Below, in pieces: positions 6,485 to 52,052 of a DNA stretch of 64,000 bases (its first letter is position 1; the number at the start of each line of letters is the position of its first letter). A model generated the notes under the pieces. That model saw nothing but the letters and a program-made list of their open reading frames with translations. It was not told the DNA's origin and ran no database searches. A program made the translations under genes and the position numbers. Source of the DNA: Mesobacillus jeotgali (GTDB lineage: Bacteria > Bacillota > Bacilli > Bacillales > Cytobacillaceae); assembly GCF_014856545.2 (NCBI RefSeq), contig NZ_CP109811.1, forward strand, positions 4,644,001 to 4,708,000. The letters are read 5' to 3'.

Positions 6485-7030
6485 TTCCACTGCCAAACCT
6501 GTCACGATTACGAGTTTTTCTTGACAGCTTTTCGCCTTTTACACCCAAACCTGTCACAATTACGGGGTTTTCTTGACAGCTTTTCGGCTTTCACACCCAA
6601 ACCTGGCACGATTACAGGGTTTTCTTGACAGCTTTTCGGCTTTCACTCCCAAACCTGTCACGATTACGGGCTTTTCTTGACAGCTTTTCGGCCTTCACTG
6701 CCAAACCTGTCACGATTACGGGTTTTCTTGACAGCTTTTCGGCTTTCACACCCAAACCTGTCACGATTACGAGCTTTTCTTGACAGCTTTTCGGGTTTCA
6801 CACCCAACCTGTCACGATTACAGCGTTTTCTTGACAGCTTTTCGGCTTTCACACCCCAAACCTGTCACGATTACAAGGTTTTCTTGACAGCTTTTCGGCT
6901 TTCACACCCGAACCTGTCACGATTACGAGTTTTTCTTGACAGCTTTCCTGCCTTCAAACCCAAACCTGTCACGATTACGAGTTTTCTTGACAGCTTTTCG
7001 GCTTTCACACTCAAACCTGTCATAATACCA
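6485..7030. repeat. array A: 52-bp-period intergenic tandem repeat, 11 units
   Basis: The word CCTGTCACGATTAC (with small variants) begins at 6498, 6550, 6602, 6654, 6706, 6757, 6808, 6861, 6913, 6965 and 7016, a period of 51-53 and mostly exactly 52. Each unit also contains TTGACAGCTTTTCGG, so TGACAG and CTGTCA form an inverted repeat spanning 35 bp. It fills the whole space between mmgC and acdA, which run the same way. Apparent long reading frames across it are artefacts of the repeat. The three other 52-bp arrays in this window have the same geometry. Confidence 0.95.
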
Positions 7031-7033
7031 GCC

Positions 7034-8164
7034 TTACAACTGCTTACTAATAACAATCTTCTGAATCTCGCTTGTTCCTTCGTAGATTTCGGTTACTTTG
7101 GCGTCGCGGAAGTAGCGTTCTACCGGATAATCCTTTGTATAGCCGTAGCCGCCGAATACCTGGATGGCTTCTGTGGTGACTTCTACTGCTGTGCGTGATG
7201 TGAACAGCTTTGCCATGGAGGCTTCTATTCCGCACTTTTGACCTTCTGAGCGTAACTGGGCAGCGCGATAGATTAATAGTTTTGCAGCTTCGACGGATGT
7301 TGCCATATCGGCCAGTTTGAAGCCGACGCCTTGCTGGGCAGCGATGGGCTTGCCAAATTGGACTCTTTCTTTTGCATAGTCAGTAGCCGCTTCCAAGGCT
7401 GCTTCGGCAATCCCAAGAGCCTGGGCGGCAATCCCGATTCGCCCGGCGTCGAGGTTGCTCATCGCGATTTTAAATCCTTCGCCTTCCTGGCCAAGCAAGT
7501 TTTCTGCCGGCACCTTCATGTCTTCGAATGTCAGCTGGACTGTGCGTGAGCCGTAAAGACCCATTTTGTGCTCATCCTTGCCGACGATAAAGCCTGGAGT
7601 GTCTTTTTCTACGATAAAAGCGGATACACCTTTGGTGCCAGCTTCCGGATTAGTCGAAGCGAACACAATATAGACGTCTGCTTCGCCGCCGTTGGTGATG
7701 AATACCTTCGAACCGTTCAACACATAGTGCCCATCCTTCTTGACTGCACGTGTTTTCAAGCTGGCCGCATCCGATCCGGCGCTTGGTTCTGTCAGACAGA
7801 ACGCCCCGAGATAGTCGCCTGCTGCAAGCTTAGGCACATATTTCTTCTTTTGCTCTTCCGTACCAAAATACAAGATCGGATTCGTTCCGACGGATGTATG
7901 GACGGAAAGGATGACGCCGACCGTGGCGCTGACCTTTGAGATTTCATGGATCGCGATGATGTAGGAGATGAAATCCATCTCCGATCCGCCATACTCTTCG
8001 GGAACCGGGATTCCCATCAGGCCAAGCTCGCCCATCTTTCTTAAAATCTCTCTCGGGAACTCGCCCTCTTCCATCTTTTCAACAAATGGTGCAATTTCGG
8101 TTTGCGCGAAATCCCGTACCATTTTGCGCATCATTTCCTGCTCTTCTGTAAATCTCAGATTCAT
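7034..8164 (-). CDS. mmgC: acyl-CoA dehydrogenase (MmgC type)
   Basis: This is a second 376-residue acyl-CoA dehydrogenase, similar in layout to AcdA but clearly a separate paralogue. It has [38 protein letters not shown] and a catalytic Glu in IYEGTSEIQ (about residue 362). It follows 3-hydroxybutyryl-CoA dehydrogenase (60-bp gap) and the thiolase, the same trio as mmgA-mmgB-mmgC of B. subtilis, where the genes act on short-chain acyl-CoA during sporulation. The next gene is separated by array A. Confidence 0.87.
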
Positions 8165-8223
8165 TTTTAACCCTCCCCGCGTCCAGACAAAAATTTATGT
8201 AAGGACGGATTCACGAAAAATTA

Positions 8224-9075
8224 TCACTCGTACGTGTAGAAACCGCGGCCTGATTTTTTGCCTAACCAGCCTGCTTTTACATATTTCCTTAACAACGGGC
8301 AAGGGCGGTATTTGTCATCGCCAAAGCCTTCGTGAAGTGTTTCCATGATGTAGAGGCAAGTATCAAGGCCGATGAAGTCTGCAAGTGTCAGCGGTCCCAT
8401 TGGGTGGTTCATGCCAAGCTTCATGACTTCGTCAATTGCTTCCTTCGTCGCTACACCCTCGTATAATGTGTAGATCGCTTCATTGATCATCGGCATCAGG
8501 ATGCGGTTTGAAACGAAGCCTGGGAAGTCATTGACTTCAACTGGGACTTTTTCCAATGTTTTGGTGATGTCTTCGATTGTTTGATAGACTTCATCAGCTG
8601 TCGCCAGTCCGCGGATGATTTCAACGAGCTTCATGACAGGCACCGGATTCATGAAGTGCATGCCGATGACTTTTTCCGGACGCTTTGTCGCTGCAGCGAT
8701 TTCCGTGATTGGCAGTGATGATGTATTGGAAGCAAGGATTGCATGTTCAGGTGCAATTTCATCAAGCTGGGCAAAGATTTTCGCTTTGATGTCCATATTC
8801 TCTACAGCCGCTTCGATAACAAGGTCCGTTTTTCCGGCATCTTGGAGATCAGTTGAAGCAGTGATTCTGCCAACAATTACATCCAACTGTTCAGCTGTCA
8901 TCCGGCCTTTGTCCACCTGACGGTTAAGGTTTTTCTTGATGCCAGCCAGACCGCGTTCCACAAAATCTGGCTTAAGGTCATTTAAAAAAACGTCGTACCC
9001 TGCATGTGCGCATACTTGTGCAATACCTGAACCCATTTGTCCTGCACCGATTACCATAATTGTTTTCACACTCAT
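8224..9075 (-). CDS. mmgB: 3-hydroxybutyryl-CoA dehydrogenase
   Basis: This NAD(P)-dependent enzyme oxidises 3-hydroxyacyl-CoA to 3-oxoacyl-CoA. The 283 residues begin with a Rossmann motif [12 protein letters not shown] (residues 9-20). The catalytic His is in [10 protein letters not shown] (about residue 140), followed by the conserved [11 protein letters not shown] helix of the C-terminal domain. A strong ribosome site (AGGAGG) precedes the ATG. It sits between the thiolase and mmgC on the same strand. Confidence 0.92.
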
Positions 9076-9142
9076 TATATTTTCCTCCTAAATAAGTACT
9101 GTCGATGGAGGGCAACTCTCACCTTGCCCTCCTATCAATTTC

Positions 9143-10335
9143 TTATTGCTTCGGGACCTCGATCATCACTGCGTCTCCCTGGCCTCCGCCTGAACAGATG
9201 GCCGCAATGCCGACCCCGCCGCCGCGGCGCTTCAGTTCGTGCATCAAGGTCAGATGATGCGTGCCCCACTCGCTCCGATTGGGTGTCCGAGTGCGACCGC
9301 ACCGCCGTTCACATTGATTTTTTCAGGATCGAGGTTCGCTATGCGGCCGCTTGTCAATGCGACTGCTGCAAAGGCTTCATTGATTTCGAAAAGATCGATT
9401 TCTTCAAGTGACTTGCCTGTCTTCTTCAACAATTCGTTAATGACAATCCCTGGAGTTTTCGGGAAATCCTTCGCCTCTGTCGCGATGGCTGTATGCCCAA
9501 GGATGACTGCCTGCGGCACCCTGCCTTCACTCTTGGCGCGTTCTTCGCTCATCAATACGAGGGCAGCCGCACCGTCATTGACGCCTGGTGCGTTTCCTGC
9601 CGTGATCGTGCCATCTGAATTGAATACAGGACTGAGCTTTGCCAGCTTCTCAAGCGAAGTATCCTTTCTTGGCGCTTCATCATGCTGAACGAGGATTGGG
9701 TCTCCCTTGCGCTGCGGGACTTCAACAGGAACGATTTCTTCAGCAAGCTTTCCTGATTCAATCGCTTGGATTGCTCTCTGGTGGCTGCGGTAAGACCACT
9801 CATCTTGTTCTTCGCGGCTGATTTCATATTCTTTCGCTACTTCATTTCCGTAAGTGCCCATGTGGACTCCCTTGAAGCTGCAAGTCAATCCATCGTGAAT
9901 CATCAAATCCTTCACCTGGCCGTCGCCCATCCTGAATCCCCACCGTGCTTTCGGAAGAATGTAAGGAGCATTGCTCATTGACTCCATTCCGCCAGCAACG
10001 ATGACTTCTTCTTCTCCTGCGCGGATAATCAGGTCGCCAAGTGTCAGGCTGCGCATACCGGATGCACACACTTTGTTGATGGTCTCTGTCTTAACTTCCC
10101 ATGGAATTCCTGCTGCTCTTGCTGCCTGGCGTGAAGGAAGCTGTCCCTGGCCTCCCTGCAGGACGGAGCCGAGAATGACTTCTCCGACATCCTCCGGTTT
10201 TACTTCTGCACGGGACAAAGCCTCTTTAATGGCGATTCCGCCAAGCTGGCTTGCTGTAAAGCTGCTGAGCGCTCCTCCCATCTTGCCGATTGGAGTTCTT
10301 GCACCTGCTAAAATAACTGTCTTTCCCATTGCCAT
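9143..10335 (-). pseudogene. mmgA: acetyl-CoA acetyltransferase (thiolase), apparent single-base frameshift near the 3' end
   Basis: Thiolase interconverts two acetyl-CoA with acetoacetyl-CoA or cleaves 3-oxoacyl-CoA. The N-terminal 361 residues read normally: nucleophile Cys in INKVCASGMRS (about residue 90), FEINEAFAAV, and [13 protein letters not shown]. The frame then meets TGA at 9250. Adding one base near 9252 restores the expected end ([12 protein letters not shown]...[16 protein letters not shown]) up to a stop at 9143-9145, including the essential CSGGGQGD cysteine loop. This is either a sequencing indel or a recent mutation. Two ATG codons (10335, 10329) are possible; AAAGGGAG is better spaced for the second. 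A weak FadR-like sequence lies at 10400-10417. Confidence 0.85.
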
Positions 10336-10490
10336 CTCTCCCTTTCAATCTATTAATCTTTGAAATTGAAAAATAAATCTCTTTTCCAGTGTCTTTGAGT
10401 GACTGAACGCTCGCTCGAAACTGGTCCAAAAAAATATGCAAGCAGTTGTCTTGTTATGAGGTTCTTAGGTGGTTTCTTGCTGAAGGATAA

Positions 10491-10504
10491 TGTAAGCGCT
10501 TTAT
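10491..10504 (-). promoter_or_regulatory. candidate CcpA cre site upstream of mmgA
   Basis: TGTAAGCGCTTTAT matches the central AAGCGCTTT of the catabolite-responsive element consensus and fails at the last two positions. It lies about 160 bp upstream of the thiolase start, in the gap after fadF. CcpA control of the mmg operon is known in B. subtilis. No clear promoter was identified around it. Confidence 0.45.
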
Positions 10505-10626
10505 CATATTATTCATTTTACTTTAAAAATAGTAGAAATTGAAACACTTTGCTAAAAATTCTGTCTTATGTCGAATTTTTACTGTGAGTCAACTTCTACT
10601 ATTCATGTTTTAAGTATTAAATTGTA

Positions 10627-12747
10627 TTAAGAAACAAGCGGTTTAATCTCACCAAAAACGGATTTTTCAAGTAGTTCTGCTACGTCTAGTGTATCGACGT
10701 TTTCTTCTACTTCCTTCGCTTTGGTTCCATCGGAGAGCATTGTCAGGCAGTATGGGCATCCGGAACTGATGACGGATGGGTTCACTGCAAGGGCCTGTTC
10801 TGTACGGGATACATTGATTCTGTGTCCTGTTTCTTCTTCCATCCACATCAAGCCGCCGCCTGCGCCACAGCACATTGCCGTATCGCGGTTGCGTTCCATT
10901 TCCTTTAGATCCACTCCTGGAATCGCTTTGAGGATATCACGCGGTGCGTCATATACTTCGTTATAGCGGCCAAGGTAGCAGGAATCATGGAAAGTGATTG
11001 TTTCGTTCACTGCATGCTTCGGAACGAGCTTTCCTTCTTTCACTAATTGCGCCAGAAGCTCAGTGTGGTGGTAAACCTCGCCTTCAAAGCCGAAATCAGG
11101 ATATTCATTCTTAAAGATATTATATGCGTGAGGGTCGATCGTCACGATCTTCTTCACTTCATTTTTCTCGAATTCTTCAATATTCTTTGTCGCAAGCTCC
11201 TGGAATAGGAACTCGTTGCCAAGGCGGCGTGGTGTATCACCAGAGTTCTTTTCCTTGTTTCCAAGGATAGCGAACTTGACGCCTGCTTCGTTCAATAGCT
11301 TAGCGAACGAAAGGGCAATCTTCTGGCTGCGGTTGTCAAAGGAACCCATCGCGCCAACCCAGAATAAGTATTCGAATTCTTCGTCTGCCTTTTTCATTTC
11401 TTTTACCGTAGGAATGACAACATCGTCGCGAAGCTCGCGCCAGTTTTCCTTTTCCTTACGGTTCAAGCCCCATGGGTTGCCCTGGCGCTCGATATTCGTC
11501 ATAGCACGCTGTGCGTCAGCATCCATCTTACCTTCAGTCAAAACAAGGTAACGGCGAAGGTCGATGATTTTGTCAACGTGTTCGTTCATGACCGGACATT
11601 GGTCTTCACAGTTACGGCAAGTTGTACAAGCCCAGATTTCTTCTTCTGTGATAACATCGCCAATCATGCTTGGGCTGTAAGCAAGGCCTGCAGCAGCTTC
11701 ATTCGCACCCTGGCCGGCAGCCGCCAAAGCGAGCTGGTTGCCCTTTGTGTTGGAGAAAGCAAATGTCGGCACCCATGGCTGTTTTGAAGTGACAGCTGCA
11801 CCCGTAAGTGTCAAATGGTCACGCAGCTTGACGATCAGGTCCATTGGCGACAGCATTTTTCCAGTGCCTGTTGCCGGACACATATTCGTACAGCGTCCAC
11901 ATTCTACGCAAGCATAGAAGTCGATCATCTGTTCATAATTAAAATCAGTGATTTTACCTGCACCGAATGTTTCCTGTGTTTCATCTTCAAAATCGATCTT
12001 TGTAATTTTTCCAGGTGAATCAACCCTTGTTAAATAAACATTGGCCGGTCCGGCAATCAAGTGAGCATGCTTGGACTGCGGTACGTACACCAGGAACGCA
12101 AGCAGGAATAATAGGTGAATCCACCATGCGATATAGAAAATCGTGATGGCAGCTGCCTCAGGAATTCCGCTGAATGCTGCCGCAATCAGAGATGCGACCG
12201 GTTCAGTCCAAGTTCCTTCATGGCCATGCCAGATCATGCTCATTCCGTTTCCGAGCAATACAGAAAGCATTAGTCCGCCAATGAACAGAAGTACAAGTCC
12301 ATTTTTAAAGCCGCGCTTCAGACGGACAAGCTTTTCTACATATCTGCGGTAAAAAGCCCATACAACCGCTACTAGAATCGTAAGCGTAACGAGTTCCTGA
12401 AAAAACGTGAAACCTGGATATAGAGGGCCTAAAGGCAAATGTGAGCCAGGCTTGATTCCTTTCCAGATAAAATCAATTGCTCCAAACTGGACAAGGAGGA
12501 ATCCATAAAAAAACATAACGTGGATCGCACCGCTTTTCTTGTCCTTTAATAGCCTTTTCTGGCCAAATACATGGACAAGGATTCTTCTCCAGCGATCCTT
12601 GATATCATCATCAAACTCTGATTTCTTGCCGAGCTTGATGTACTCGATTCTCGTCTTTACCACGTATACAAACAAGCTGACAGCGTAAGCGGTTACAAGT
12701 AAGAACGCGATAAGATTAATCCATAGCAGACCGTTCATAAAAATCAT
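10627..12747 (-). CDS. fadF: membrane iron-sulfur oxidoreductase for fatty acid oxidation (FadF/YwjF)
   Basis: This 706-residue protein has an N-terminal membrane part with about five or six helices (a NarI-like fold, starting INLIAFLLVTAYAVSLF). Two [4Fe-4S] motifs follow, CVECGRCTNMCP and CTTCRNCEDQCP, and then two CCG-type domains (HDSCYLGRYN, AMCCGAGGGLMW) as in heterodisulfide reductase subunits. Bacillus FadF is thought to carry electrons from electron-transfer flavoprotein to the quinone pool during beta-oxidation. Its promoter contains a FadR-type operator. The start ATG at 12747 has AAAGGGG just upstream. Confidence 0.88.
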   Translation of the reverse strand: MIFMNGLLWINLIAFLLVTAYAVSLFVYVVKTRIEYIKLGKKSEFDDDIKDRWRRILVHVFGQKRLLKDKKSGAIHVMFFYGFLLVQFGAIDFIWKGIKPGSHLPLGPLYPGFTFFQELVTLTILVAVVWAFYRRYVEKLVRLKRGFKNGLVLLFIGGLMLSVLLGNGMSMIWHGHEGTWTEPVASLIAAAFSGIPEAAAITIFYIAWWIHLLFLLAFLVYVPQSKHAHLIAGPANVYLTRVDSPGKITKIDFEDETQETFGAGKITDFNYEQMIDFYACVECGRCTNMCPATGTGKMLSPMDLIVKLRDHLTLTGAAVTSKQPWVPTFAFSNTKGNQLALAAAGQGANEAAAGLAYSPSMIGDVITEEEIWACTTCRNCEDQCPVMNEHVDKIIDLRRYLVLTEGKMDADAQRAMTNIERQGNPWGLNRKEKENWRELRDDVVIPTVKEMKKADEEFEYLFWVGAMGSFDNRSQKIALSFAKLLNEAGVKFAILGNKEKNSGDTPRRLGNEFLFQELATKNIEEFEKNEVKKIVTIDPHAYNIFKNEYPDFGFEGEVYHHTELLAQLVKEGKLVPKHAVNETITFHDSCYLGRYNEVYDAPRDILKAIPGVDLKEMERNRDTAMCCGAGGGLMWMEEETGHRINVSRTEQALAVNPSVISSGCPYCLTMLSDGTKAKEVEENVDTLDVAELLEKSVFGEIKPLVS

Positions 12748-12821
12748 TTACCCCTTTCGATGCTGATTTTTGGATGGAAAATTTTTAACCAAACAAATTT
12801 TCTGAATATACCTTTAACTAC

Positions 12822-12849
12822 ATTATATAATGAATGAGCATTCAGTCAA
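12822..12849 (-). promoter_or_regulatory. fadF promoter with overlapping FadR operator
   Basis: On the minus strand, TTGACT (12844-12849) and TATAAT (12822-12827) are 16 bp apart. The palindrome TGAATGAGCATTCAGTCA at 12831-12848 fills the spacer and overlaps the -35 box. It agrees with the Bacillus FadR consensus (TGAATGA...TCATTCA) at 15 of 18 positions. This arrangement would let FadR block polymerase directly. The regulator gene lies at 4603-5241. Confidence 0.8.
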
Positions 12850-12964
12850 CTCATTTCCTATCATTTCTGAAAATTGTTTACACTTCCTCTTTTACAGGAA
12901 CTTAACATATATGAAGCGATTTCGGCAAAAATAAAGGAAATACTTTTAAGGGAGCCGGATTGCT

Positions 12965-14152
12965 ATGGATTTTGGATGGATTTTGATTGCAATAATAGCT
13001 GGCCTTTTCCTCTGGGTCTACGTTGATTTCATGCTCGGCAGAAAGAAGCATCTGGCAAACGCGAAAACAAATACACTGCCGGTCCGGGAAAGCAACCTTG
13101 CCATTTTTGCCGAAGGCCCTAAATTGTTCGAGGATCTTTTTTCCGAATTAAAAAACGCAAAGCAGCACATTCATATTTTGTTTTATATCGTCCAGGATGA
13201 TAAAATCAGCCAGAAATTTCTCTCCATTTTAAAACAAAAAGTTAAGGACGGGGTCGAGGTGCGCCTTATGGTCGATTGGGTGGGCAGCGGACTGAAGCGC
13301 AAGACGATTAAATCGCTGAAGGCTGCCGGCGTGGAATTCGCTTATTCCCAAATGCCTAAATTGCCGTTCTTATTTTACTCGTCCCAGGTGCGGAACCACA
13401 GGAAAATCACCGTCATTGACGGAAAGATCGCTTATCTCGGCGGCTTCAATATCGGCAATGAATATAACAATCAGGATCCAAAGCTGTCGCCATGGCGCGA
13501 TTATCACTTGAAAATGACCGGGGAAGGCGTTACCGATCTGCAATCAGAGTTCCTTGAAGATTGGCGTGCAGCTGCGAAGGTCAACTTGCTGCAAAATAAA
13601 GCCTATTTCCCTTCCCTCGAAAAAGGCACGATCCGTCAGCAGCTTGTTCCAACTGAAGGCATTCTTCTGGAGGAAATGATGTCAGACCTGATCAGCAATG
13701 CAAAGACTTCGATTTTTATTGGGACACCGTATTTCATTCCGAGCAAAAGGGTATTCAGCTTATTGCGGGATGCAATCAAAAGAGGTGTTTCAGTGACGGT
13801 TCTTGTCCCGCTCGTTTCCGACCATGCCCTTGTTAAAGAAGCTTCCTATCCTTATCTGAGGACTCTTATCAGGGATGGCGCAGAGGTCTATCAGTATTTA
13901 AATGGCTTTTATCATTCAAAGGCCCTGCTCGTGGATGATACGGTTTGTGACATTGGCACCGCCAATTTTGATAAAAGAAGCATGTTCTTAAATTATGAAT
14001 TGAACTGCCTGATTTATGATGTTGATTTTATCAAAAAAATTAAGCTGATTCTGACAGAAGATATCCTGAACTCAAGGAAGGCCGCTTTGGATGACTTCAC
14101 CCGTTCCTTGCTGAAGGAAAAAGCCGCGAGTACCATTTCCTATTTTTTATAA
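12965..14152 (+). CDS. clsB: cardiolipin synthase (phospholipase D superfamily)
   Basis: The enzyme makes cardiolipin from two phosphatidylglycerols at the membrane. The 395 residues have a single N-terminal transmembrane helix (residues 4-22) and two HKD catalytic motifs: HRKITVIDG (His145) and HSKALLVDD (His317). It corresponds to B. subtilis ywjE/clsB by position, divergent from fadF and followed 35 bp later by uvsE. The ribosome site AAGGGAG lies upstream of the ATG. Confidence 0.88.
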   Translation: MDFGWILIAIIAGLFLWVYVDFMLGRKKHLANAKTNTLPVRESNLAIFAEGPKLFEDLFSELKNAKQHIHILFYIVQDDKISQKFLSILKQKVKDGVEVRLMVDWVGSGLKRKTIKSLKAAGVEFAYSQMPKLPFLFYSSQVRNHRKITVIDGKIAYLGGFNIGNEYNNQDPKLSPWRDYHLKMTGEGVTDLQSEFLEDWRAAAKVNLLQNKAYFPSLEKGTIRQQLVPTEGILLEEMMSDLISNAKTSIFIGTPYFIPSKRVFSLLRDAIKRGVSVTVLVPLVSDHALVKEASYPYLRTLIRDGAEVYQYLNGFYHSKALLVDDTVCDIGTANFDKRSMFLNYELNCLIYDVDFIKKIKLILTEDILNSRKAALDDFTRSLLKEKAASTISYFL

Positions 14153-14187
14153 TGAACCGGCCTGCTCGACAATAAAGGAGTGTCGCT

Positions 14188-15144: not shown

Positions 15145-15148
15145 GCTG

Positions 15149-15180
15149 AAGGCTGCTGGACCATCCAGCAGCCTTTATTT
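15149..15180 (+). terminator. intrinsic terminator after uvsE
   Basis: AAGGCTGCTGG pairs with CCAGCAGCCTT around a short loop, followed by a T-rich stretch. The hairpin lies between converging genes. Confidence 0.8.
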
Positions 15181-17036: not shown

Positions 17037-17038
17037 AA

Positions 17039-19639: not shown

Positions 19640-19785
19640 ATTTTTTCGAATCGCATTGTTTTTATTCGTAAATTTCGAAGTTTATTCGAAAAAAAACTCA
19701 TTTATTCGCAAACTAGCTGGTTTTATTCGCAAACTAGCTGGTTTTATTCGCAAAAAACCACCATTTATTCGCAAACTGGAAATTC
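19640..19785. repeat. array F: 20-21-bp-period intergenic repeat
   Basis: The word TTATTCG recurs with ATTCG beginning at 19664, 19684, 19704, 19725, 19746 and 19767; most copies read TTATTCGCAAACT. The two central units, with AAACTAGCTGG, are identical. The array lies between the DUF1540 terminator and the atoE terminator, so it should be little transcribed. It resembles array E at 56.9 kb in period. Confidence 0.85.
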
Positions 19786-27288: not shown

Positions 27289-27292
27289 GCTT

Positions 27293-27709
27293 TCTTGTGA
27301 CCGTGATCCGCGATTTTCCCTTTTCACGGGCACAAGATTCCCTTTCTTGTGACCGTGATACGCGGTTTTCCCTTTTCACGGGCACATGTTTCCCTTTCTT
27401 GTGACCGTGATCCGCGGTTTTTTCTTTTCACGGGCACATGTTTCCCTTTCTTGTGACCGTGAATCACGGTTTTCCCTTTTCACGGGCACAAGATTTCCTT
27501 TCTTGTGACCGTGAATCACGGTTTTCCCTTTTCACGGGCACATGTTTCCCTTTCTTGTGACCGTGATACGCGGTTTTCCCTTTTCACGGGCACATGTTTC
27601 CCTTTCTTGTGACCGTGAATCACGGTTTTCCCTTTTCACGGTCACAAGATTTCCTTTCTTGTGACCGTGAACCATGTTTTCCTCTTTTCACGGGCACAAA
27701 CTGTATACT
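27293..27709. repeat. array B: exact 52-bp-period intergenic tandem repeat, 8 units
   Basis: CTTGTGACCGTGA begins at 27294, 27346, 27398, 27450, 27502, 27554, 27606 and 27658, an invariant 52-bp step. Within each unit GTGACCGTGA and TCACGGGCAC form an inverted repeat spanning 37 bp, with one mismatch; in unit 7 the right arm is TCACGGTCAC and pairing is perfect. Several units also contain the small palindrome CCGTGAATCACGG. The array lies between converging ywhB and ywgA, flanked by both genes' terminators. Confidence 0.96.
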
Positions 27710-38526: not shown

Positions 38527-38766
38527 AAAGCGCAAGCGCCTTGGTCAGACCCGACAAGCGGTGGAGGGCCTGGCAGTGAAGTCGTTCTTCGACTTCATTG
38601 ACAGGACCGAACTTGAAAAGCGGAGGCGACTGCCCAACTCCGACAAGCGCTGGAGGGCCTGGCAGTGAAGTCGCTCTTTGACTTCATTGGCAGGACCGAA
38701 GCGTCTCGAGGAGTTAGGAGCCGCAGCTAGACAAGCGTCTCGAGGGGCTAGGCGCTGGAGCTAGAC
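38527..38766. repeat. dispersed intergenic repeat, one and a half to two copies in tandem
   Basis: The region starts AAAAGCGCAAGCGCCTTGG and ends GGCGCTGGAGCTAGACA. It contains two related blocks (38527-38640 and about 38641-38766), each with CCGACAAGCG, GTGGAGGGCC or CTGGAGGGCC, and a hairpin TGAAGTC...GACTTCA. A third block at 52633-52754 is highly similar. Inverted end words (AAGCGCCT and AGGCGCT) give each block a MITE-like fold. It separates moeB from moaD and occupies most of a 366-base gap. Confidence 0.85.
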
Positions 38767-38871
38767 ACTAATCAGAGTTTAAAACTTCACTTAGAAAATA
38801 AGAAAAGCACAAACGCCCTGTTCCATCGACCATCAAGTCAACAGAACGGGCGCCGCAGTTGCTATGTCGGA

Positions 38872-39599: not shown

Positions 39600-39918
39600 A
39601 TATTTTTACGGACACTTTTCTCGGATTCCGCCTCCGATTTATCCGTTAGAGCCCTCCTATCGGACACTTTTCTCGGATTCCGCCTCCGGTTTGTCCATTT
39701 GAGCCCTTCTATCGGACACTTTCACCGGATTCTATCCTCGGTTTGTCCGTTAGAGCCCTTCTATCGGACACTTTCACCGGATTCCGCCTCCGATTTGTCC
39801 ATTAGAGCCCTTCTATCGGACACTTTCGCCGGTTTCTGCCTCCGGTTTGTCCGTTAGGACCCTTCTATCGGACACTTTCACCGGATTCTGCCTAAAGTTT
39901 GTCCGTTAGAGTTCTTCT
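39600..39918. repeat. array C: exact 52-bp-period intergenic tandem repeat, 6 units
   Basis: CGGACACTTT begins at 39609, 39661, 39713, 39765, 39817 and 39869, an exact 52-bp step. In each unit CGGACA and TGTCCG (or close variants) form an inverted repeat spanning 37 bp, with CCGGA/TCCGG nested inside several units. It lies between moeA and moaE, which run in the same direction, so it may be transcribed inside the operon. Confidence 0.96.
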
Positions 39919-39932
39919 ATGCACAGCTATGT

Positions 39933-41851: not shown

Positions 41852-41864
41852 GATGCGGCTCCCC

Positions 41865-43097: not shown

Positions 43098-43128
43098 GCT
43101 GACTTACTTCCTTTCTAGCACCTGAAAA

Positions 43129-43728: not shown

Positions 43729-43744
43729 CCCACAGCACCTTCTT

Positions 43745-44554: not shown

Positions 44555-44594
44555 TGCTGCAGCCCCTCTTTCGCTCTATTATTCTAAATTTTGA

Positions 44595-44628
44595 AGGGAA
44601 TGGAGCCCTGTCAGAGCAGCCATTCCCT
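44595..44628 (-). other. intercistronic hairpin between the FDH cytochrome subunit and fdhE
   Basis: AGGGAATGG and CCATTCCCT are perfect 9-bp arms between the two genes. On the mRNA strand there is no U run, so it more likely protects or partly attenuates the message than terminates it. Confidence 0.55.
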
Positions 44629-44639
44629 CTATTAATGTT

Positions 44640-45347
44640 TTACGCGCCTTTTTTCTTGTTCTTGTTTTTATCAAGGTCAGGGAAATTGCCCTTCTTGACT
44701 TCTTCTTCATACCATTCTGTATAGTGGTCCTTCGCCCACTCAGCAGGAACCTCACCTGTAATGACTCCAGTGTATCCCGGTCTTGAGTTTTTGTGGATGA
44801 CACTCAGATAGATATGGCCGACCACTACCGCGATTGCCAGACCGAAGCCAACGTTATGGGCAACATATGCCCACTGGACGACCGCTTTCGGGAACAGGTC
44901 CGGGAACCACATTGGGAAGCCGGAACCGATAATTAGGATCGCAGTCAGGATCTGGATGATTGAGTTGATTTTCTCACCAGCGTTGAAGAATGTTTGTTTT
45001 ACATGCTTGAACTTAAAGCCAAATAGTTCTTTGACGAACTCAGTGAAAAACTGGATATCTCTTTTTTTCCAAGTAACAAGCTCTTTTCCCCAGCGCAGGA
45101 ACCCCTTAGGATCCATGATCAGCCAGATGAAAGTAGGCGTAATGAAGGCGATCGCGAATATCCTGTGAAGCAGGCGCGCTCCTTCTGGTCCGCCTAGTAC
45201 TGGATAAAGCCAGTCAAACCACTCTGTATACATTGGCAGGGCCGTGATATACAGTGCAAAGAATGAAAGGGCGTTCACAGCATGTGCGATAACAAAACCT
45301 TTCGAGAAACGCTTAACCTTCACACCTGAATACTGCGTATTACTCAT
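44640..45347 (-). CDS. formate dehydrogenase cytochrome b556 (gamma) subunit
   Basis: This membrane anchor passes electrons from the iron-sulfur subunit to quinone. The 235-residue protein has four hydrophobic helices with candidate heme-binding His in KGFVIAHAVNALSFF, LLHRIFAIAFI, YVAHNVGFGLAIAVVVGHIYLS, and a FdnI-type C-terminus (EWAKDHYTEWYEEE). GGAGGTG lies 6 bases before the ATG at 45347. The start overlaps the end of fdhB by eight bases. Confidence 0.88.
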   Translation of the reverse strand: MSNTQYSGVKVKRFSKGFVIAHAVNALSFFALYITALPMYTEWFDWLYPVLGGPEGARLLHRIFAIAFITPTFIWLIMDPKGFLRWGKELVTWKKRDIQFFTEFVKELFGFKFKHVKQTFFNAGEKINSIIQILTAILIIGSGFPMWFPDLFPKAVVQWAYVAHNVGFGLAIAVVVGHIYLSVIHKNSRPGYTGVITGEVPAEWAKDHYTEWYEEEVKKGNFPDLDKNKNKKKGA

Positions 45348-46167
45348 GGCTGCCACCTCCATCCTCTTCATGGCCTTTGCCTTCTTTATTGAATAGCTTG
45401 TTGGACACGAATGCCCCTACAAGCGCCATGCTTGTTGCTCCAAGCATCATCTTGCCGATTGGCTGTGCGTAGTCCTTCCAGACAACAGCTGATGTTGGAA
45501 CCTTTGGTTTTTCAGGAAGCCCGTAGACAGATGGTTTTTCAGCAAGTACATAAACAGTGTGTGTACCGCCGACTCCTTCTGGGTTGTAAATCATTGCGTT
45601 CGGATACTTATCCTTGATTTCGCTCAGGCGCTTTTCAGCCTTCTTGAGCATTTCTTCTTTCGTGCCAAATTCCATTGCGTCTGTATGGCAGGTAGTGACA
45701 CAAGCAGGCTGCATGCCTTCTTCAAGACGATCGACGCACATTGTGCATTTCTGCGCCTTCTTGTATTCCTTGCCGTTTTTGTCTTTGTAAGTCGCCAGCT
45801 GGACAACATCGAATGGGCAGTTCTGCACACAGTAGCCGCAGCCTACGCATTTGTCCGTATTGACATCCACTGTTCCGAAATCTGTGTAGTGCATGGCTTC
45901 TTCAGGGCAAACCTTAACGCAAGCCGCTTCCGAGCAATGGAAGCATGAAGAATGGCGGAAAAGGTAGTCCAGATTGCCTTTTGAATCTTCGTGTTCAATG
46001 AATGACAGGACGTTCCATGTGTTTGCTGTTACCTTCGCATGAGACTGGACGCTGCCCTGGAACTCTTCCGGCTCAGCCGGAAGATCGTTCCAGTTTTTGC
46101 AGGCGACCATACAGGCGCGGCAGCCGTCACACTTGGTTACATCGACATATTTAATATACTCCGCCAT
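45340..46167 (-). CDS. fdhB: formate dehydrogenase iron-sulfur (beta) subunit
   Basis: The 275-residue protein holds four ferredoxin-like [4Fe-4S] clusters (CDGCRACMVACKNW near the N-terminus, CFHCSEAACVKVCP, CVGCGYCVQNCPFDV, CTMCVDRLEEG...CVTTC). A C-terminal transmembrane helix (MMLGATSMALVGAFVSNKLF) fits anchoring beside the cytochrome subunit. The start overlaps the fdhA stop (TAATG). Confidence 0.93.
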   Translation of the reverse strand: MAEYIKYVDVTKCDGCRACMVACKNWNDLPAEPEEFQGSVQSHAKVTANTWNVLSFIEHEDSKGNLDYLFRHSSCFHCSEAACVKVCPEEAMHYTDFGTVDVNTDKCVGCGYCVQNCPFDVVQLATYKDKNGKEYKKAQKCTMCVDRLEEGMQPACVTTCHTDAMEFGTKEEMLKKAEKRLSEIKDKYPNAMIYNPEGVGGTHTVYVLAEKPSVYGLPEKPKVPTSAVVWKDYAQPIGKMMLGATSMALVGAFVSNKLFNKEGKGHEEDGGGSHE

Positions 46168-49151
46168 TAGTCAGCCCTCCTTATATCACAGAGGAATGCC
46201 TTATATTCAGGAATGGTCGTATTCGCATCCCCGATATGAGGTGTCAAGCGGTTTGCTGTATCCCCTGTTGCAATTCCTTTATAGCCAAAGTGCCAAGGCA
46301 TGCCGACCTGATGCACCTTCTTGCCGTTCATCATATGAGGCTTGAAGCGCTTGGTAACCATTGCATAGGCTGTGATATCACCACGGGCCGAGCTGACAAT
46401 GATTTTATCTTTGTTCTTGATGCCTTTTTCCTTTGCGAGTTCTTCACTCATTTCAATATACATATGGCCTGACAGCTCGGACAGCCATTCCTGATTACGT
46501 GTCATCGAACCAGACTGCCAGTGCTCAGAAACCCTGTAAGTTGTACCGACGATCGGATATTTCTTGCTGTCGCCTTTCAGGTTGAACTCGCCCTCAATGA
46601 TGACAACTGCCGGGTTGATTTCCTGGCTAGAGAAGGTATTTTTCACCGGGCTTTCAAACGGTTCATAGTGTTCAGGGAACGGACCGTCATTCAGCGTTGG
46701 CGCGAATAGACCTCCGACTCCGCCGTTGATCATGATGAACGGATTCGTTCCGCCTGCATCTGAAGGTGCTACTGTTGGCTTGAAGTCAGGAATGTCATTT
46801 CCAGTCCATTTCTTCTGGCTTCCATCCCACCAGATGACCGCTTTTTTGTCGCTCCATGGCTTTCCGCTTGGATCAGCAGATGCACGGTTGTAAAGGATTC
46901 GGCGGTTCGCAGGCCATGCATATGCCCAGTTCAGGAAGTTCCCGCCGCCAGTATCCTTGTTGTCACGATTCTTGGAGCGGTTCTTGCCTTCCTCTGGATA
47001 GAAGCCTGAATAAATCCAGTTACCAGAGCTTGTTGTACCATCATCCTTCAGGTCGCCGAAGCCTTTCAAGAGTTGTCCTGTTTTCAGGTCATAGCCATTG
47101 ATTTCCTTTGCGACAAGGTCGATATCCGGATGGTGGCCTTCACCATAGTTCCAATACAACGCATTGATCTGCTTGGCTGCAGCTGAACTTTCATTTTGAT
47201 AAAGGGCCTTGATATTCTTGACCAGCATGTGAATGATTTCCAAGTCAGCCAAAGATTCTCCTTTTGGATCAATCGCCTTCCAGCGGTATTGCATCCAGCG
47301 TGAAGAGTTAGACACACTGCCCTCTTTCTCATAAGAGCTTGCTGCCGGCAGAAGGAAAACTTCTGTATCGATCTTCGATGGGTCACTGCCCGCTTCCTCT
47401 TGCCAGAAAGCAGATGTTTCGGTTTCCCAAAGGTCAACCGCTACCATCCATTTAAGATTTGACAGCGCTTCTTTTTCCTTGCCTGCATTCGGGCCGCCGA
47501 CTACAGGGTTTGTTCCAAATAAGAACGCGCCTTCCAGTTCGCCTTTATACATAGCATTGAACAAATTGATATGCGAGTAGTTCTTGTTTCCTTTCGGAAG
47601 GTACTGGTATCCAAATTCGTTCGCTTTTGTCGCATTCGGGCCATACCAGGCCTTCAGCATACTGACTAGGAACTTAGGTTTGTTGCTCCAGTAACCGCCA
47701 GATGGTGTTTCCTTTTTGTTGTAGCCTTCTAATGTCGCATGCTCAGGGATTGCAGTTGGCGTTCCAACATATCCTGGAAGCAGGTGATAAAGCAGAGCAA
47801 AATCAGTGGATCCCTGTACATTGGACTCTCCGCGCATCGCGTTGATTCCGCCGCCAGGCAGACCGATATTTCCAAGCAGCAATTGGATGATTCCAAAAGC
47901 ACGGACGTTCTGTGTTCCAACCGTATGCTGGGTCGTACCCATCGCATACATGATCGTACCGGATTTGCCAATCTTGCTTGTTGAACAGAAAGTCTCACAG
48001 ACTTTCAGGTAATCTTCTTTTGGTGTTCCTGTTACCGCGATTACTGAATCGACATCATAGCGTGAGAAATGCTTCTTCAGCAGCTGGAATACAGATCGCG
48101 GATGTGTAAGGGTTTTATCCTTTTTCGGATTGCCTTCTTCGTCTGTTTCAAAAGCCCATTTCGTTTTGTCATACTTGCGGGTTGCTTCGTCATACCCGCT
48201 GAATAGTCCATCATTGAACTCAAAATCTTTTTTTACAATGAAAGATGCATTTGTATATTCAGCAACATACTCTCTGTGGATCAAGTTATTCTCTAACGCA
48301 TAGTTGATCATTCCGCCCATGAAGGCAATATCCGTTCCTGAGCGAAGCGAAGCATAGACGTCAGCCTTTGATGAGGTCCTCGTGAAACGAGGGTCAACAG
48401 AGACGATTTTGCCGCCTTTTTCTTTCGCTTTAGTCAACCATCTGAAAGAAATTGGGTGATTCTCGGCAGGATTCCCGCCCATGATCAATGCACAATCGGT
48501 ATTTTGCAGATCGCTCCAATGGTTTGTCATTGCTCCACGCCCTACTGTAGGTGCCAGACCGGCAACCGTAGAACTGTGTCATATTCGTGCCTGGTGTTCG
48601 AGATAAACGACGCCAAGCCCTCTCATCATTTTCGCAAGCAGATAAGTCTCTTCATTATCAAGAGCTGCTCCGCCTAAGCTCGCAATGGCTTCGGTCTTAT
48701 TGACAAACATGCCATTTTCTTTCTCAATGAATGTTTTGTCGCGTGTTTCCTTCGTACGTTTTGCAATTGTTTCATACATCCAGTCCCAGCTTTTCTCTTC
48801 CCATTTCTTGCTGCCAGGAGCTCGATATAATGGCTTTGTTAAGCGTTTTTCAGATGTGTAGACTTGTCTGATTGTTGTACCTTTACTGCAAAGTGTACCT
48901 TCGTTGACTGGGCTATCCGGATCCCCTTCCGTATAAACCACAGTATTGTCCTTTGTGTGTACCAAGATTCCGCAGCCTACGCCGCAGAATGCACAAATGG
49001 TTGGTGTAACAGTAGCTTTGGCAATCTTGAGTTCTTTTGATTTTGCATGGACCTCTTTTTCGTTAAAGCCCAACTCGACAACCGCCAGGGTCGCCGCAGT
49101 GGCACCTGACAGCTTCAAGAACTGCCGGCGATTCAGGTTGATTTCAACCAT
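46167..49151 (-). CDS. fdhA: selenocysteine-containing formate dehydrogenase, catalytic (alpha) subunit
   Basis: The enzyme oxidises formate to CO2 at a molybdenum bis-MGD site. A twin-arginine signal (NRRQFLKLSG) directs export. The N-terminal [4Fe-4S] motif is CAFCGVGC...C (Cys53, 56, 60, 88). The frame contains a TGA at 48579-48581 in the context EHQARI-TGA-HSSTVAGLAPT, exactly where selenocysteine occurs in FdnG (QARVUHGPTVASLAPT), so residue 191 is read as Sec. A SECIS hairpin follows at once. The rest (GGNPAENHPISFRW, VDPRFTRTSSKAD, GTTQHTVGTQNVR) is intact to the stop, 994 residues in all. The ATG follows GGAAGGAG. Automatic callers will split it into 190- and 787-residue pieces. No sel genes lie in this window. 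Confidence 0.94.
48550..48581 (-). promoter_or_regulatory. UGA selenocysteine codon and bacterial SECIS element in fdhA
   Basis: After the UGA (48579-48581) come 11 bases and then the hairpin GGU-U-GCC-GGUCU-GGC-ACC (48567 down to 48550). The E. coli fdhF SECIS has the same 11-base spacing, the same bulged U after GGU and the same GGUCU loop, which SelB recognises. The stem here is one pair longer. Confidence 0.92.
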
Positions 49152-49206
49152 CTCTCTCTCTCCTTCCCAATAGTTGCTTAGAACATCCCTAATCCCACAG
49201 GTGGTG

Positions 49207-50009
49207 TCAATTCAGTACTTGCTGGGCTTCCCCCCTTTCAAGTAAATCCTCAGAGGCAGCCGCCGGAGTTAAATCATCATTAATCCTCCTGGCAGATGTA
49301 TAGACAGTCGCCATTTTTCCTCTCAAGTAGCCAACGACCTCAATGTTGAGGAAGCGGGCCAGCTGGATGGCCTGCTTTGTGGCCGCAGTACGCGAGCCAA
49401 TGACGGCAAAACCAAATTTAGCAGCTTTTGAGAGCATTTCATATGAAACCCTTCCAGTCGTCAAAAGGACGAGACGGTCAGGCTGCAAACGCTTTCGAAT
49501 TGCGTGGCCAATAATCTTGTCAACAGCATTATGCCTGCCGATATCTTCCCTGACTTCAATGCTACCATCTCGAGGATGATACAGGCACCGTGCATGCCGC
49601 CCGTTTCAAGGTATAGCGGCGAATTTTGCGCAAATTCCGCGCGTTTTTTCAACAAATATGTCATCGAATAGGTTTCATCGGAATTCACTTTATTGAACTT
49701 CTTGACATCCGTCATCGAAAAGAAGGTCACTCCCCGACCGCAGCCGGCTGTATAATGCTTCTTTTTCGAAAACATCTGCTCAGGATCAAAGGAATTGCAT
49801 AATGCTACATCCAATGTTCCGGTCTTTTCGTTGAATTGGACGCTGACAACGTCCTCCGGCCCATCAATCAAACCTTCTGAAAAAAGGTAGCCATAAACCC
49901 AGTCTTCCAAATCTTGATTTGTCAGCTGGAATACCGCAATCTCATACCCATTCAGCTTCAGGCTGATTGGATATTCTTCAGGACAGCCTTTCTTGATCAT
50001 GTTCTTCAC
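49207..50009 (-). pseudogene. fdhD: formate dehydrogenase sulfurtransferase FdhD, apparent single-base frameshift
   Basis: FdhD transfers sulfur from IscS to the molybdenum cofactor before its insertion into FDH. The N-terminal part reads EYPISLKLNGYEIAVF, GYLFSEGLID and the active-site region TAGCGRGVTFF, then ETGGMHGACIIL. The frame breaks near 49568-49574; one added base restores EDGSIEVREDIGRHNAVDKIIGHAIR and the rest to the stop at 49207 (LVLLTTGRVSYEML, EVVGYLRGKMATVYT). The active Cys is in the intact part. It is the first gene of the FDH block. Usual family length is about 260 residues, matched when repaired. Confidence 0.87.
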
Positions 50010-50134
50010 CCCTTATCTGGTACTTCATCCCCGGGCTCCGCTGCAACTATCGACTTCTTCCCTTCCATCATCGGTGTGATGGGATTGAAAGACTGTTATG
50101 AATCTTGCAAGCTATATTCGGTTCATTAAAGTTA

Positions 50135-50433
50135 GGCTCTGTTAAATTTGACTGTTGATTTTCGTTCCAGGCGCTTCGCTTTCCGCGGGGAAGAATTATG
50201 AAAAAGCCCAACTGCCGGCTTTTTCATAATTCTTCCTTGCAGTCGGGGAGCCTCCTCGGCGCTTCAAGCGCCTGCGGGGTCTCCCCATGACTTGCTCATC
50301 CCGCAGGACATTGATTGTGCTTCCTGCACCTGCCCACGCACGATGAAAATGCGTTAGCATTTTCGGAGGAGTCTTCTCGCCTTCCACTACAATCAACAGG
50401 ATGTAAAGATCAACATTGGGTTATAACAGAGCC
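50135..50433. mobile_element. 299-bp MITE-like element with GGCTCTGTTA terminal inverted repeats
   Basis: GGCTCTGTTA (50135-50144) and TAACAGAGCC (50424-50433) are perfect terminal inverted repeats, with a second inverted pair CTGTTGATT/AATCAACAG further in. Inside lie a perfect 19-bp inverted repeat GAAGAATTATGAAAAAGCC (50190-50208 with 50217-50235), a GGCGCTTCAAGCGCC palindrome and a GAAAATGC/GCATTTTC hairpin. AAAGTTA flanks the left end and recurs one base outside the right end, a possible target duplication. GGCTCT ends resemble ISL3-family termini. The element has no transposase. It lies upstream of fdhD. Confidence 0.8.
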
Positions 50434-50522
50434 AAAAGTTAAGAACCTTATATTAAAAAAACATTCCACTATGCAAAGAGGGTTAATACCCCTATGCCTT
50501 TAATGTACTGGAAATTACATGG

Positions 50523-50546
50523 TTGTAACCGTTTCAATTGTTACAA
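50523..50546. promoter_or_regulatory. inverted repeat, candidate operator between fdhD and pdxK
   Basis: TTGTAAC (50523-50529) and GTTACAA (50540-50546) are perfect arms with a 10-base spacer, in an AT-rich part of the 846-base gap between divergent fdhD and pdxK. The binding protein is unknown. Most of the remaining gap outside the MITE and the pdxK promoter shows nothing I recognise. Confidence 0.4.
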
Positions 50547-50738
50547 TAATATAGATGAAAATTGTCTATTTTTTAACAAACTCTTAAATTGAGATTTTTT
50601 ATTTACGAAAAATCCCTAGTGGGTCAATTTTCACATAGTCAACTGTAATTCAATTTATTTTCCCTCAGTAACATTCATCACGTCAAAGCACTAATGCCAC
50701 AAAATCGTCAAAAGTTAATTTTAACCAACTTAAAAAAG

Positions 50739-50782
50739 ATACCAATCCAATCCTTTGTCTAAATCTATAGAATTGGTATAAT
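50739..50782 (+). promoter_or_regulatory. pdxK promoter overlapped by an inverted repeat
   Basis: TTGTCT (50755-50760) and TATAAT (50777-50782) are 16 bp apart. Perfect 8-bp arms ATACCAAT (50739-50746) and ATTGGTAT (50772-50779) bracket the -35 region and overlap the -10 box, which suggests an operator. Confidence 0.62.
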
Positions 50783-50855
50783 CATAAGAAAGTGATGAAG
50801 GTGACTTGTCTTGTTCTAATGAGCAGTCACCATTCTTAAAATGGAGGTAGTATAG

Positions 50856-51680
50856 ATGAGTTTGAAAAAGGTGTTAACAATCGCGGGTTCCGATACAAGC
50901 GGCGGCGCTGGCATCCAGGCTGACCTTAAAACCTTTCAGGAGCTGGGCGTATATGGAATGACCGCTCTTACCACGATTGTGACAATGGATCCTAAAAATC
51001 ACTGGCATCATGAAGTTTTCCCACAGCCAGTTGAGCTTGTCGAAAAGCAGCTTGAAACGGTTCTTTCCGTTGGAATAGATGCAATGAAGACAGGTATGCT
51101 CGGAACAGTCGAGATCATCGAGCTATCTGCACGTAAAATCGATGAGCATAAATTGGACAGGGTAGTCATCGACCCTGTAATGGTATGTAAAGGGGAAGAC
51201 GAGGTTCTCATGCCTGAAAACACAGATGCAATGAGAGAATTGCTTCTGCCAAGAGCAACAGTTGTCACTCCGAACCTGTTTGAAGCATGGCAACTCGCTC
51301 AAACCGGGCCAATCCGTACAATAGATGACATGAAGGAAGCAGCGGTAAGAATCCATGATCTAGGCGCGAAGAACGTTATGATTAAAGGTGGAAACAAGCT
51401 GAACCACGAAAAAGCAGTGGACCTTCTATATGATGGAAAAGATTTCACTCTTTTCGAATCCGAAAAGGTCGAAACAAGCTTCACACATGGTGCAGGCTGC
51501 ACATTCGCTTCCGCGATCACTGCACAGCTGGCAAAAGGCAAAACAGTACCTGAAGCATTGGAAGTGGCGAAGGGATTCATCACCGAAGCCATCAAGCACG
51601 GCTTCAGGCTGAATGAATATGTAGGCCCAACCGCACACCTCGCGTACAACAAGTACGCAGGCGGCAATCGCGGGGAATAA
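50856..51680 (+). CDS. pdxK: pyridoxine/hydroxymethylpyrimidine kinase
   Basis: This ribokinase-like enzyme phosphorylates pyridoxal/pyridoxine in B. subtilis (gene once named thiD). The 274 residues contain LTIAGSDTSGGAGIQADLKTFQ, GMTALTTIVTMDP, DAMKTGMLGT, IDPVMVCKG, VTPNLFEA and the anion-hole motif FTHGAGCTFASAI. The sequence is close to B. subtilis PdxK and occupies the same neighbourhood near ung. Strict assignment between PdxK and ThiD activity is inferred. Confidence 0.9.
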   Translation: MSLKKVLTIAGSDTSGGAGIQADLKTFQELGVYGMTALTTIVTMDPKNHWHHEVFPQPVELVEKQLETVLSVGIDAMKTGMLGTVEIIELSARKIDEHKLDRVVIDPVMVCKGEDEVLMPENTDAMRELLLPRATVVTPNLFEAWQLAQTGPIRTIDDMKEAAVRIHDLGAKNVMIKGGNKLNHEKAVDLLYDGKDFTLFESEKVETSFTHGAGCTFASAITAQLAKGKTVPEALEVAKGFITEAIKHGFRLNEYVGPTAHLAYNKYAGGNRGE

Positions 51681-51690
51681 AAGGCAAAAC

Positions 51691-51747
51691 AAAAAGAGGC
51701 TGCCTCCAAAGCTCATTATTTTGAGCTTTCGGCAGCCTCTTTTTTCT
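51691..51747 (+). terminator. terminator after pdxK
   Basis: AAAAAGAGGCTGCC pairs with GGCAGCCTCTTTTT, with an inner AAAGCTCA/TTGAGCTTT stem, and is followed by T's. Confidence 0.95.
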
Positions 51748-51799
51748 GTTACTGAATGATATAGACATTAAACGGCATGCTTTTGTGCGATAGAGTCTT

Positions 51800-52052
51800 T
51801 CTAATGGACACTTTTCCGGGAATTCCTCATGCGTTTGTCCGATAGAGACCTTCTAATGGACACTTTTCCGGGAATCCCTCATGCGTTTGTCCGATAGAGA
51901 CCTTCTAATGGACACTTTTCTCGCAAACCTTCATGAATTTGTCCGATAGAGACCTTCTAACGGACACTTTTCTGGGAATCCCTCATACTTTTGTCCGATA
52001 GAGACCTTCTAACGGACACTTTTCTGGGAATCCTCATACTTTTGTCCGATAG
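51800..52052. repeat. array D: exact 52-bp-period intergenic tandem repeat, 5 units
   Basis: GGACACTTTTC begins at 51806, 51858, 51910, 51962 and 52014, an exact 52-bp step. Each unit has GGACA and TGTCC as inverted arms spanning 35-37 bp, with CGATAGAGACCTTCTAA as linker. The arms and the words CTTCTA and TAGAG are shared with array C, while the centre of the unit differs. The array lies between converging pdxK and the DUF2512 gene, beyond the pdxK terminator. Confidence 0.96.

What the first reader, a model, noticed from the sequence alone, without database searches (positions are those of the whole stretch)
6485..52052. Four unrelated-looking intergenic arrays share an exact 52-bp period and a 35-37-bp internal inverted repeat
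Arrays A (6485-7030, 11 units), B (27293-27709, 8), C (39600-39918, 6) and D (51800-52052, 5) differ in sequence, yet B, C and D step by exactly 52 bp at every unit and A by 51-53 bp, mostly 52. Each unit holds inverted arms (A TGACAG/CTGTCA; B GTGACCGTGA/TCACGGGCAC; C and D CGGACA/TGTCCG) spanning 35-37 bp, leaving a 15-17 bp linker. A, C and D also share a GACA(n)CTTTTC-type word beside the left arm. 52 bp is close to five turns of B-DNA, so identical faces would repeat. A common period with locus-specific sequence implies selection on spacing or a copying mechanism with fixed length. I know of no named family that fits. The phasing and arm geometry are seen directly; a role in protein binding, nucleoid organisation or an unknown amplification process is inference.
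Basis: partly seen in the sequence, partly recalled or inferred. Interest (0 to 1): 0.9.

Follow-up and report, generated by a model that had tools for sequence, protein, structure and literature searches.

The report
Fork-oriented 52-bp satellite arrays
The four arrays belong to an already published class of constant-length, variable-sequence bacterial tandem repeats, but here they prove to be short DNA palindromes joined by purine-rich spacers that mostly point the way the replication fork moves, which gives a lead on their unknown role.

Summary
All four arrays have period 52. In 81 stretches of the same genome (1.664 of 4.836 Mb) 54 arrays fall at period 52 and 7 at 53; block-shuffled DNA gives none at 52. 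The claim that no named family fits is wrong: Subirana and Messeguer described this class in Bacillus (PMC8161180), with constant 51-53 or 20-21 nt length, variable sequence and unknown function.

What I add, not found in what I could read:
(1) The arms are kept as a DNA dyad: 3.3% mismatches in stems, 12.6% elsewhere, and no excess of G-T over A-C mismatches.
(2) Spacers are 69% purine on the leading strand. Polarity follows the replication fork in 57 of 63 arrays, including 6 of 6 between genes running against the fork. Fourfold sites reach only 51-53%. A second species agrees in 13 of 14, another genus in 7 of 9; one stretch of the second species disagrees.

Best mechanism (inferred, 0.35): hairpins on the lagging-strand template drive array upkeep. 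Main rival: polar termination of head-on transcription. Why 52 stays unexplained.

The parts
6464..7022 (-). Array A, 10.8 units of 52 bp, GACAG family; purine-rich strand is minus (the leading strand here); lies between two acyl-CoA dehydrogenase-like genes on the minus strand
   Evidence: also best fits 259 bp (five units)
27290..27699 (-). Array B, 7.9 units of 52 bp, CTTGTGCCCGTGA family, no indel; in a convergent gap
   Evidence: also best fits 156 bp (three units)
39609..39920 (-). Array C, 6.0 units of 52 bp, CGGACA family, no indel; 13 bp after a minus-strand gene in my gene calls
51776..52052 (-). Array D, 5.3 units of 52 bp, CGGACA family, one 1-bp deletion in the last unit; in a convergent gap
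   Evidence: dyad not significant by itself (p 0.19)

Best explanation
Arrays A-D are members of the published constant-length (52-nt) satellite class of Bacillus and relatives. Shown here: in most arrays the unit holds two complementary arms, conserved within an array but different between families, plus spacers that are purine-rich on the leading strand; the polarity follows the replication fork, not the neighbouring genes. Inferred: the arrays are kept by replication. When the fork passes, the lagging-strand template (which has the purine-rich sequence) is single-stranded; the arms fold into hairpins at a fixed pitch, separated by purine-rich gaps that may hold single-strand binding protein poorly. 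Units that fold are duplicated, lost or copied by slippage or annealing on that strand, in blocks of one to several units, which keeps arms complementary and polarity fixed while the sequence drifts. The 52-53 bp pitch would be set by the footprint of a structure-specific protein on the array; this last step is a guess.
For: Fork polarity: leading-strand purine 0.612 on average in 63 arrays, above 0.5 in 57, against 0.516 in 562 non-array gaps; 22 of 23 arrays between genes along the fork, 6 of 6 against it, 20 of 22 convergent, 8 of 10 divergent. Non-stem bases are 69% purine, fourfold third positions only 51-53% on the leading strand. AGAAAA lies on the leading strand in 31 of 63 arrays and its complement in 1. 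Same polarity in G019 (13 of 14) and, weaker, in G035 (7 of 9). Dyad: stem columns 3.3% mismatches, others 12.6%, columns complementary about other centres 9.0%; 7 of 11 double changes restore pairing; DNA folding z -2.84 and -2.89 on the two strands, -0.58 and -0.55 in control gaps. Density flat from origin to terminus, 30-47 per Mb. Block duplications of 3 and 5 units in B and A. Gap of array A 160-1221 bp in 19 congeners.
Against: Six of 63 own arrays do not fit the polarity, nor 2 of 9 in G035; in G019 21 of the 100 listed GAAAAGCTGTC places, at 2.26-2.61 Mb, oppose the sign of nearby GC skew. Folding energy does not differ between the strands (p 0.08), so nothing shown here singles out the lagging template. 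Nothing explains 52: within-array indels do occur (149 events to 1898 substitutions). Array A has been kept in place in all four congeners fetched, which would also fit a selected function. The terminator reading explains the same polarity.
Confidence: 0.35

Rival explanations
1. Polar transcription barriers. On the lagging strand each hairpin is flanked by a T/C-rich tract, so the array acts as a row of weak intrinsic terminators that stop transcription running against the fork (head-on or antisense) and let transcription along the fork pass.
For: Terminator-like sites in RNA read against the fork: 96, shuffles 32.2, in 38 of 63 arrays; along the fork 13, shuffles 7.8, in 5 of 63 (first 420 bp of each array). 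Convergent gaps are enriched (22 of 61 arrays, 175 of 1040 gaps, p 4e-4).
Against: T-richness borders the stem on both sides, not only downstream (56 arrays); array C gives no site; the excess of GU over AC read on the lagging strand (55 to 41) is not significant; polarity also holds in divergent gaps (8 of 10), where little head-on transcription enters; 52 is not explained.
Confidence: 0.25
2. A double-stranded protein platform (nucleoid organisation), with units on the same helix face about five turns apart, as the first reader and Subirana and Messeguer suggest.
For: Constant 52-53 bp, near five turns; the other class is 20-21 bp, near two turns (and PMC8161180).
Against: At least eight arm types by eye in one genome, arm distances differ between families, and it does not predict fork polarity.
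Confidence: 0.2
3. RNA element of the upstream gene's transcript (3' UTR hairpins or small RNA).
For: In co-directional gaps 21 of 29 arrays lie nearer the upstream stop than the downstream start (medians 88 and 168 bp). B. coagulans satellites appear in RNA-seq reads (PMC8625621, section 3.2 read).
Against: Polarity follows the fork even between genes against it (6 of 6); no wobble preference; no Rfam match in the window at gathering scores.
Confidence: 0.1
4. No function: slippage satellites whose purine skew is plain mutational strand bias.
For: Copy number varies widely at one locus (gap 160-1221 bp in 19 genomes); blocks of units are duplicated.
Against: Fourfold sites reach only 51-53% purine against 69% in spacers; stems are conserved; one period only.
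Confidence: 0.1

Closest known systems
Constant-length 52-nt (51-53) tandem repeats of Bacillus, Subirana and Messeguer 2021 (PMC8161180; parts 1-3 of 5, tables and references read)
   Same: Period 52, variable sequence, several families per genome, short words with their reverse in one repeat, Bacillaceae; B. subterraneus is among their species
   Different: Nothing sets these arrays apart; fork polarity, dyad conservation and gene context are not mentioned in the parts and passages I saw. Their 2020 J. Bacteriol. paper was not held
20-21-nt tandem repeats of the same authors
   Same: Present in the same genome and window; constant length, variable sequence
   Different: Not clearly polar: 15 of 21 above 0.5, mean 0.53
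REP/BIME palindromic arrays with RAYT transposases (recalled)
   Same: Intergenic palindrome arrays near gene ends
   Different: Fixed 52-bp pitch, many unrelated arm types, and three array-bearing genomes without any Y1 transposase match
Fork-polar motifs KOPS/SRS (recalled)
   Same: Purine-rich on the leading strand over both chromosome arms
   Different: No fixed motif: the recalled SRS octamer occurs twice in 20,750 bp of arrays; no rise towards the terminus

Membership tests
Constant-length 52-nt Bacillus satellites | Repeat length 51-53 nt in most arrays of the genome | tested here: met
   54 arrays at 52 and 7 at 53 in 1.664 Mb
Constant-length 52-nt Bacillus satellites | Variable sequence, several families in one genome | tested here: met
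   At least eight types by eye among 66 consensus units
Constant-length 52-nt Bacillus satellites | Non-coding | tested here: met
   Most of 61 arrays lie in gaps between called genes; a few overlap a called gene end (negative distances); 52 is not a multiple of three
Constant-length 52-nt Bacillus satellites | A short word and its reverse in the same repeat | tested here: met
   Dyad better than shuffles (p at most 0.05) in 47 of 66 arrays
Constant-length 52-nt Bacillus satellites | Transcribed (reported for B. coagulans) | not testable with these tools
   No RNA data
REP/BIME with RAYT | A RAYT (Y1) transposase goes with the arrays | tested here: not met
   Y1 in 18 of 21 genomes of the genus, one in this genome; G006, G015 and G016 have none but have 38, 18 and 17 array-pattern matches
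CRISPR | Unique spacers between near-identical repeats | tested here: not met
   The whole 52-bp unit repeats, 86-90% matches in A-D; cas genes were not sought
Intrinsic terminators | Hairpin followed directly by a T-tract, one-sided | tested here: inconclusive
   96 sites against 32 in shuffles on the lagging strand, but T-rich on both sides of the stem
KOPS/SRS | A fixed octamer, denser towards the terminus | tested here: not met
   Recalled SRS octamer twice in 20,750 bp; flat density
Known structured RNA family | Match at gathering score | tested here: not met
   0 matches in the window, Rfam 15

The most novel reading that the evidence does not exclude
The 52-bp satellites are a genome-wide, fork-oriented structural system: regularly pitched hairpins with purine-loaded gaps on the lagging-strand template, kept by replication itself or read by a structure-specific replication protein. 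Length, not sequence, would be the conserved trait, and one protein footprint of about 52 nt would set it.
Probability: 0.3. Interest if true: 0.8.

Novelty: new member of a known kind. Interest (0 to 1): 0.55.

Why it matters
PMC8161180 leaves both the function and the constant length of this class open. Fork polarity that ignores gene direction, together with a conserved DNA dyad, narrows 'nucleoid protein or small RNA' to processes tied to replication or to head-on transcription, and these can be told apart by simple orientation tests in a laboratory strain.

Tried and rejected
RNA element: not favoured, polarity ignores gene direction, no wobble preference, no Rfam match. Mutational skew as sole cause: fourfold sites 51-53% against 69%. 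RAYT/REP: three array-bearing genomes lack Y1. Loss of SbcC (palindrome nuclease) as the permissive cause: the SbcC_Walker_B family is found in 58 of 61 genomes, this one included; it is missing in G010 (66% complete), G035 (which has arrays) and G052. SRS/KOPS: octamer too rare to define the arrays (2 in 20,750 bp; by the genome-sample rate about 0.5 expected), no gradient. Neobacillus sp. OS1-33 (20 x 20 kb): only two 52-bp arrays, little power. Literature: searches gave, for this class, PMC8161180, PMC8625621 and PMC6749651; the J. Bacteriol. 2020 paper was not held, so I do not claim that polarity is unpublished.

Rows dropped: 66 arrays found, 63 kept with at least 2.5 units; two overlapping pairs (L032, L183) are counted as two each; 61 of 63 have gene context; stem figures use the 56 arrays with dyad score 6 or more. 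Genes were called by my own codon-score script, not an annotator. An earlier, smaller context count (27 arrays) is superseded.
Full report
What is there. TRF finds the four arrays with period 52: A 6464-7022, B 27290-27699, C 39609-39920, D 51776-52052. The strongest autocorrelation lags of the window are 52, 104 and 156. B and C have no indel, D one and A four indel columns. B scores higher at 156 bp than at 52 and A higher at 259 bp, as if blocks of three and five units had been duplicated.

The genome. The window is 4,644,001-4,708,000 of a single contig of 4,835,561 bases. The acyl-CoA dehydrogenase-like protein beside array A is 94% identical to one of Bacillus sp. REN3 and 91% to one of Mesobacillus subterraneus, the two best of 80 named loci; the organism is probably in or near Mesobacillus. 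Arrays there: 54 of period 52, 7 of 53, one each of 51 and 54, two of 104 and one of 107; 10 of 20 and 6 of 21; other periods are few. Block-shuffled DNA gives none at 52. By extrapolation the genome holds about 180 (63 in 1.664 Mb). By eye the consensus units form at least eight types (CGGACA, GACAG, CTTGTGCCCGTGA, ATAAGGGTAC, TGACGGACA, CACCAAT, ACATTTCGG, TTTACCG). The ATAAGGG type runs at 53-54.

Is it known? As a class, yes. Subirana and Messeguer (PMC8161180: parts 1-3 of 5, tables, references and term passages seen) report 1886 of 4029 Bacillus tandem repeats at 51-53 nt and 781 at 20-21 nt, constant in size, variable in sequence, function unknown; they suggest nucleoid binding or small RNA and note that short words and their reverse often share a repeat. 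Their species include B. selenatarsenatis, B. boroniphilus and B. subterraneus. A companion paper (PMC8625621: abstract, section 3.2 and term passages) finds B. coagulans satellites in RNA-seq reads. Of PMC6749651 I saw the abstract and term passages. The J. Bacteriol. 2020 paper is not held.

The dyad is DNA-level. Consensus units have a better circular dyad than their shuffles (p at most 0.05) in 47 of 66 arrays; D alone does not. In the 56 arrays with a dyad score of 6 or more, stem columns differ from consensus at 3.3% and other columns at 12.6%; columns complementary about other centres differ at 9.0%. Of single changes in stem pairs read on the leading strand 41 give G-T and 55 A-C (p 0.18); of 11 double changes 7 restore pairing. 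Two-unit segments fold as DNA with mean z -2.84 and -2.89 on the two strands, against -0.58 and -0.55 in 63 control gaps; the strands do not differ significantly (p 0.08). Arm spacing differs between families, so the period is the constant.

Polarity follows the fork. GC skew changes sign between the stretches at 2.51 and 2.57 Mb. Leading-strand purine is 0.612 on average in 63 arrays, above 0.5 in 57, against 0.516 in 562 non-array gaps (p 6e-24). It does not follow genes: along the fork 22 of 23, against it 6 of 6, convergent 20 of 22, divergent 8 of 10. Non-stem bases are 39.6% A, 29.4% G, 16.2% C, 14.7% T; fourfold third positions give 51-53% leading-strand purine. AGAAAA occurs on the leading strand in 31 of 63 arrays and its complement in 1; AGGAAA in 22 and 0. 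Of 14 CGGACA-type loci looked at, 10 with the usual loop strand have 0.57-0.72 leading purine; of four with the loop flipped one has 0.64 and three 0.45, 0.50 and 0.53. GAAAAGCTGTC occurs 121 times forward and 93 reverse in this genome (reversed control 1 and 4); the 50 places listed, 16 kb to 1.07 Mb, are all on the leading strand, the other 164 were not listed. Density is flat from origin to terminus (30-47 per Mb).

Relatives. TGTCCGATAGAGCCCTTCTATCGGACA (up to 3 mismatches) is found in 22 of 61 genomes, 18 of them among the 21 of this genus, with none for the reversed control. In G019, same genus, 13 of 14 sampled arrays agree with local GC skew, the miss lying where skew is 0.004. Against this, of the 100 GAAAAGCTGTC places listed for G019 (of 174), 21 at 2.26-2.61 Mb oppose the sign of the skew samples at 2.22 and 2.45 Mb. 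In G035, another genus, 7 of 9 agree, mean 0.55, the two misses being the lowest-scoring arrays. Neobacillus sp. OS1-33: 2 of 2 arrays of lag 52; with the 50-54 rule used elsewhere 3 of 4, the miss being a 51-bp array whose coding status I did not check. Two named Mesobacillus loci: 2 of 2 by the skew of their 9 kb. The 20-21-bp class here is not clearly polar (15 of 21, mean 0.53) and 12 of 21 are convergent.

Locus history. The gap around array A is 160 to 1221 bp in 19 of 21 genomes of the genus (coordinates, table; G004 and G010 not measured). Four fetched congeners (18 had been asked for) and M. subterraneus hold the same type at 52 bp on the same strand, with other unit numbers. Bacillus sp. 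REN3 shows no array there. Three other Bacillaceae loci (L111, L113, L114) carry 21-bp arrays just after the same gene; words such as AAGTTGACCGAAG in L113 look like 52-bp arms.

Gene context. Of 61 arrays 22 are convergent, 29 co-directional, 10 divergent, against 175, 660 and 205 of 1040 gaps of at least 50 bp; the convergent excess is significant (p 4e-4), the divergent share is not different (p 0.62). In co-directional gaps 21 of 29 lie nearer the upstream stop.

Mechanism. Sequence-blind, structure-bearing, fork-polar and without gradient best fits a process on the lagging-strand template: hairpin-driven slippage or annealing with purine-rich gaps. This is inference; the footprint that would fix 52 is a guess. 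The main rival is polar termination of head-on transcription: 96 terminator-like sites against 32 in shuffles on the lagging strand, 13 against 8 on the other, though T-richness borders the stem on both sides. RAYT, SbcC loss and SRS-like motifs were tested and not supported.

Verdict.

Noticed in passing
window 56919-57065 and 19701-19754: Two arrays of the other published class, about 20-21 bp (TTCGCTATAAAAAT type and a 21-bp one), in convergent gaps.
   Followed up: partly
L111 5242-5335, L113 5215-5315, L114 5195-5272: Other Bacillaceae carry 21-bp arrays just after the orthologue of the gene beside array A; cores such as AAGTTGACCGAAG look like the arms of 52-bp arrays, so the two classes may be related (direct against inverted use of one core)..
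   Followed up: partly
window 27290-27698 and 6460-7022: Higher-order repeats of three (156 bp) and five (259 bp) units, a trace of block duplications.
   Followed up: no
window 38699-38767; L031 18752-19043: Dispersed CTCGAG-containing repeats (34-bp and 124-bp periods) unlike the 52-bp class.
   Followed up: no
G019 C1:2255564-2609627: Four or more arrays of one family oppose the local GC skew; a recent terminus shift or rearrangement might explain it.
   Followed up: no
G000 C1:4307853-4308179: A single Y1 transposase-like gene (192 aa open frame), with longer relatives in most genomes of the genus.
   Followed up: partly
window about 51690-51745: Read by eye: a bidirectional terminator-like hairpin with A and T runs just left of array D, so D may lie within the 3' end of the right-hand gene's transcript.
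   Followed up: no
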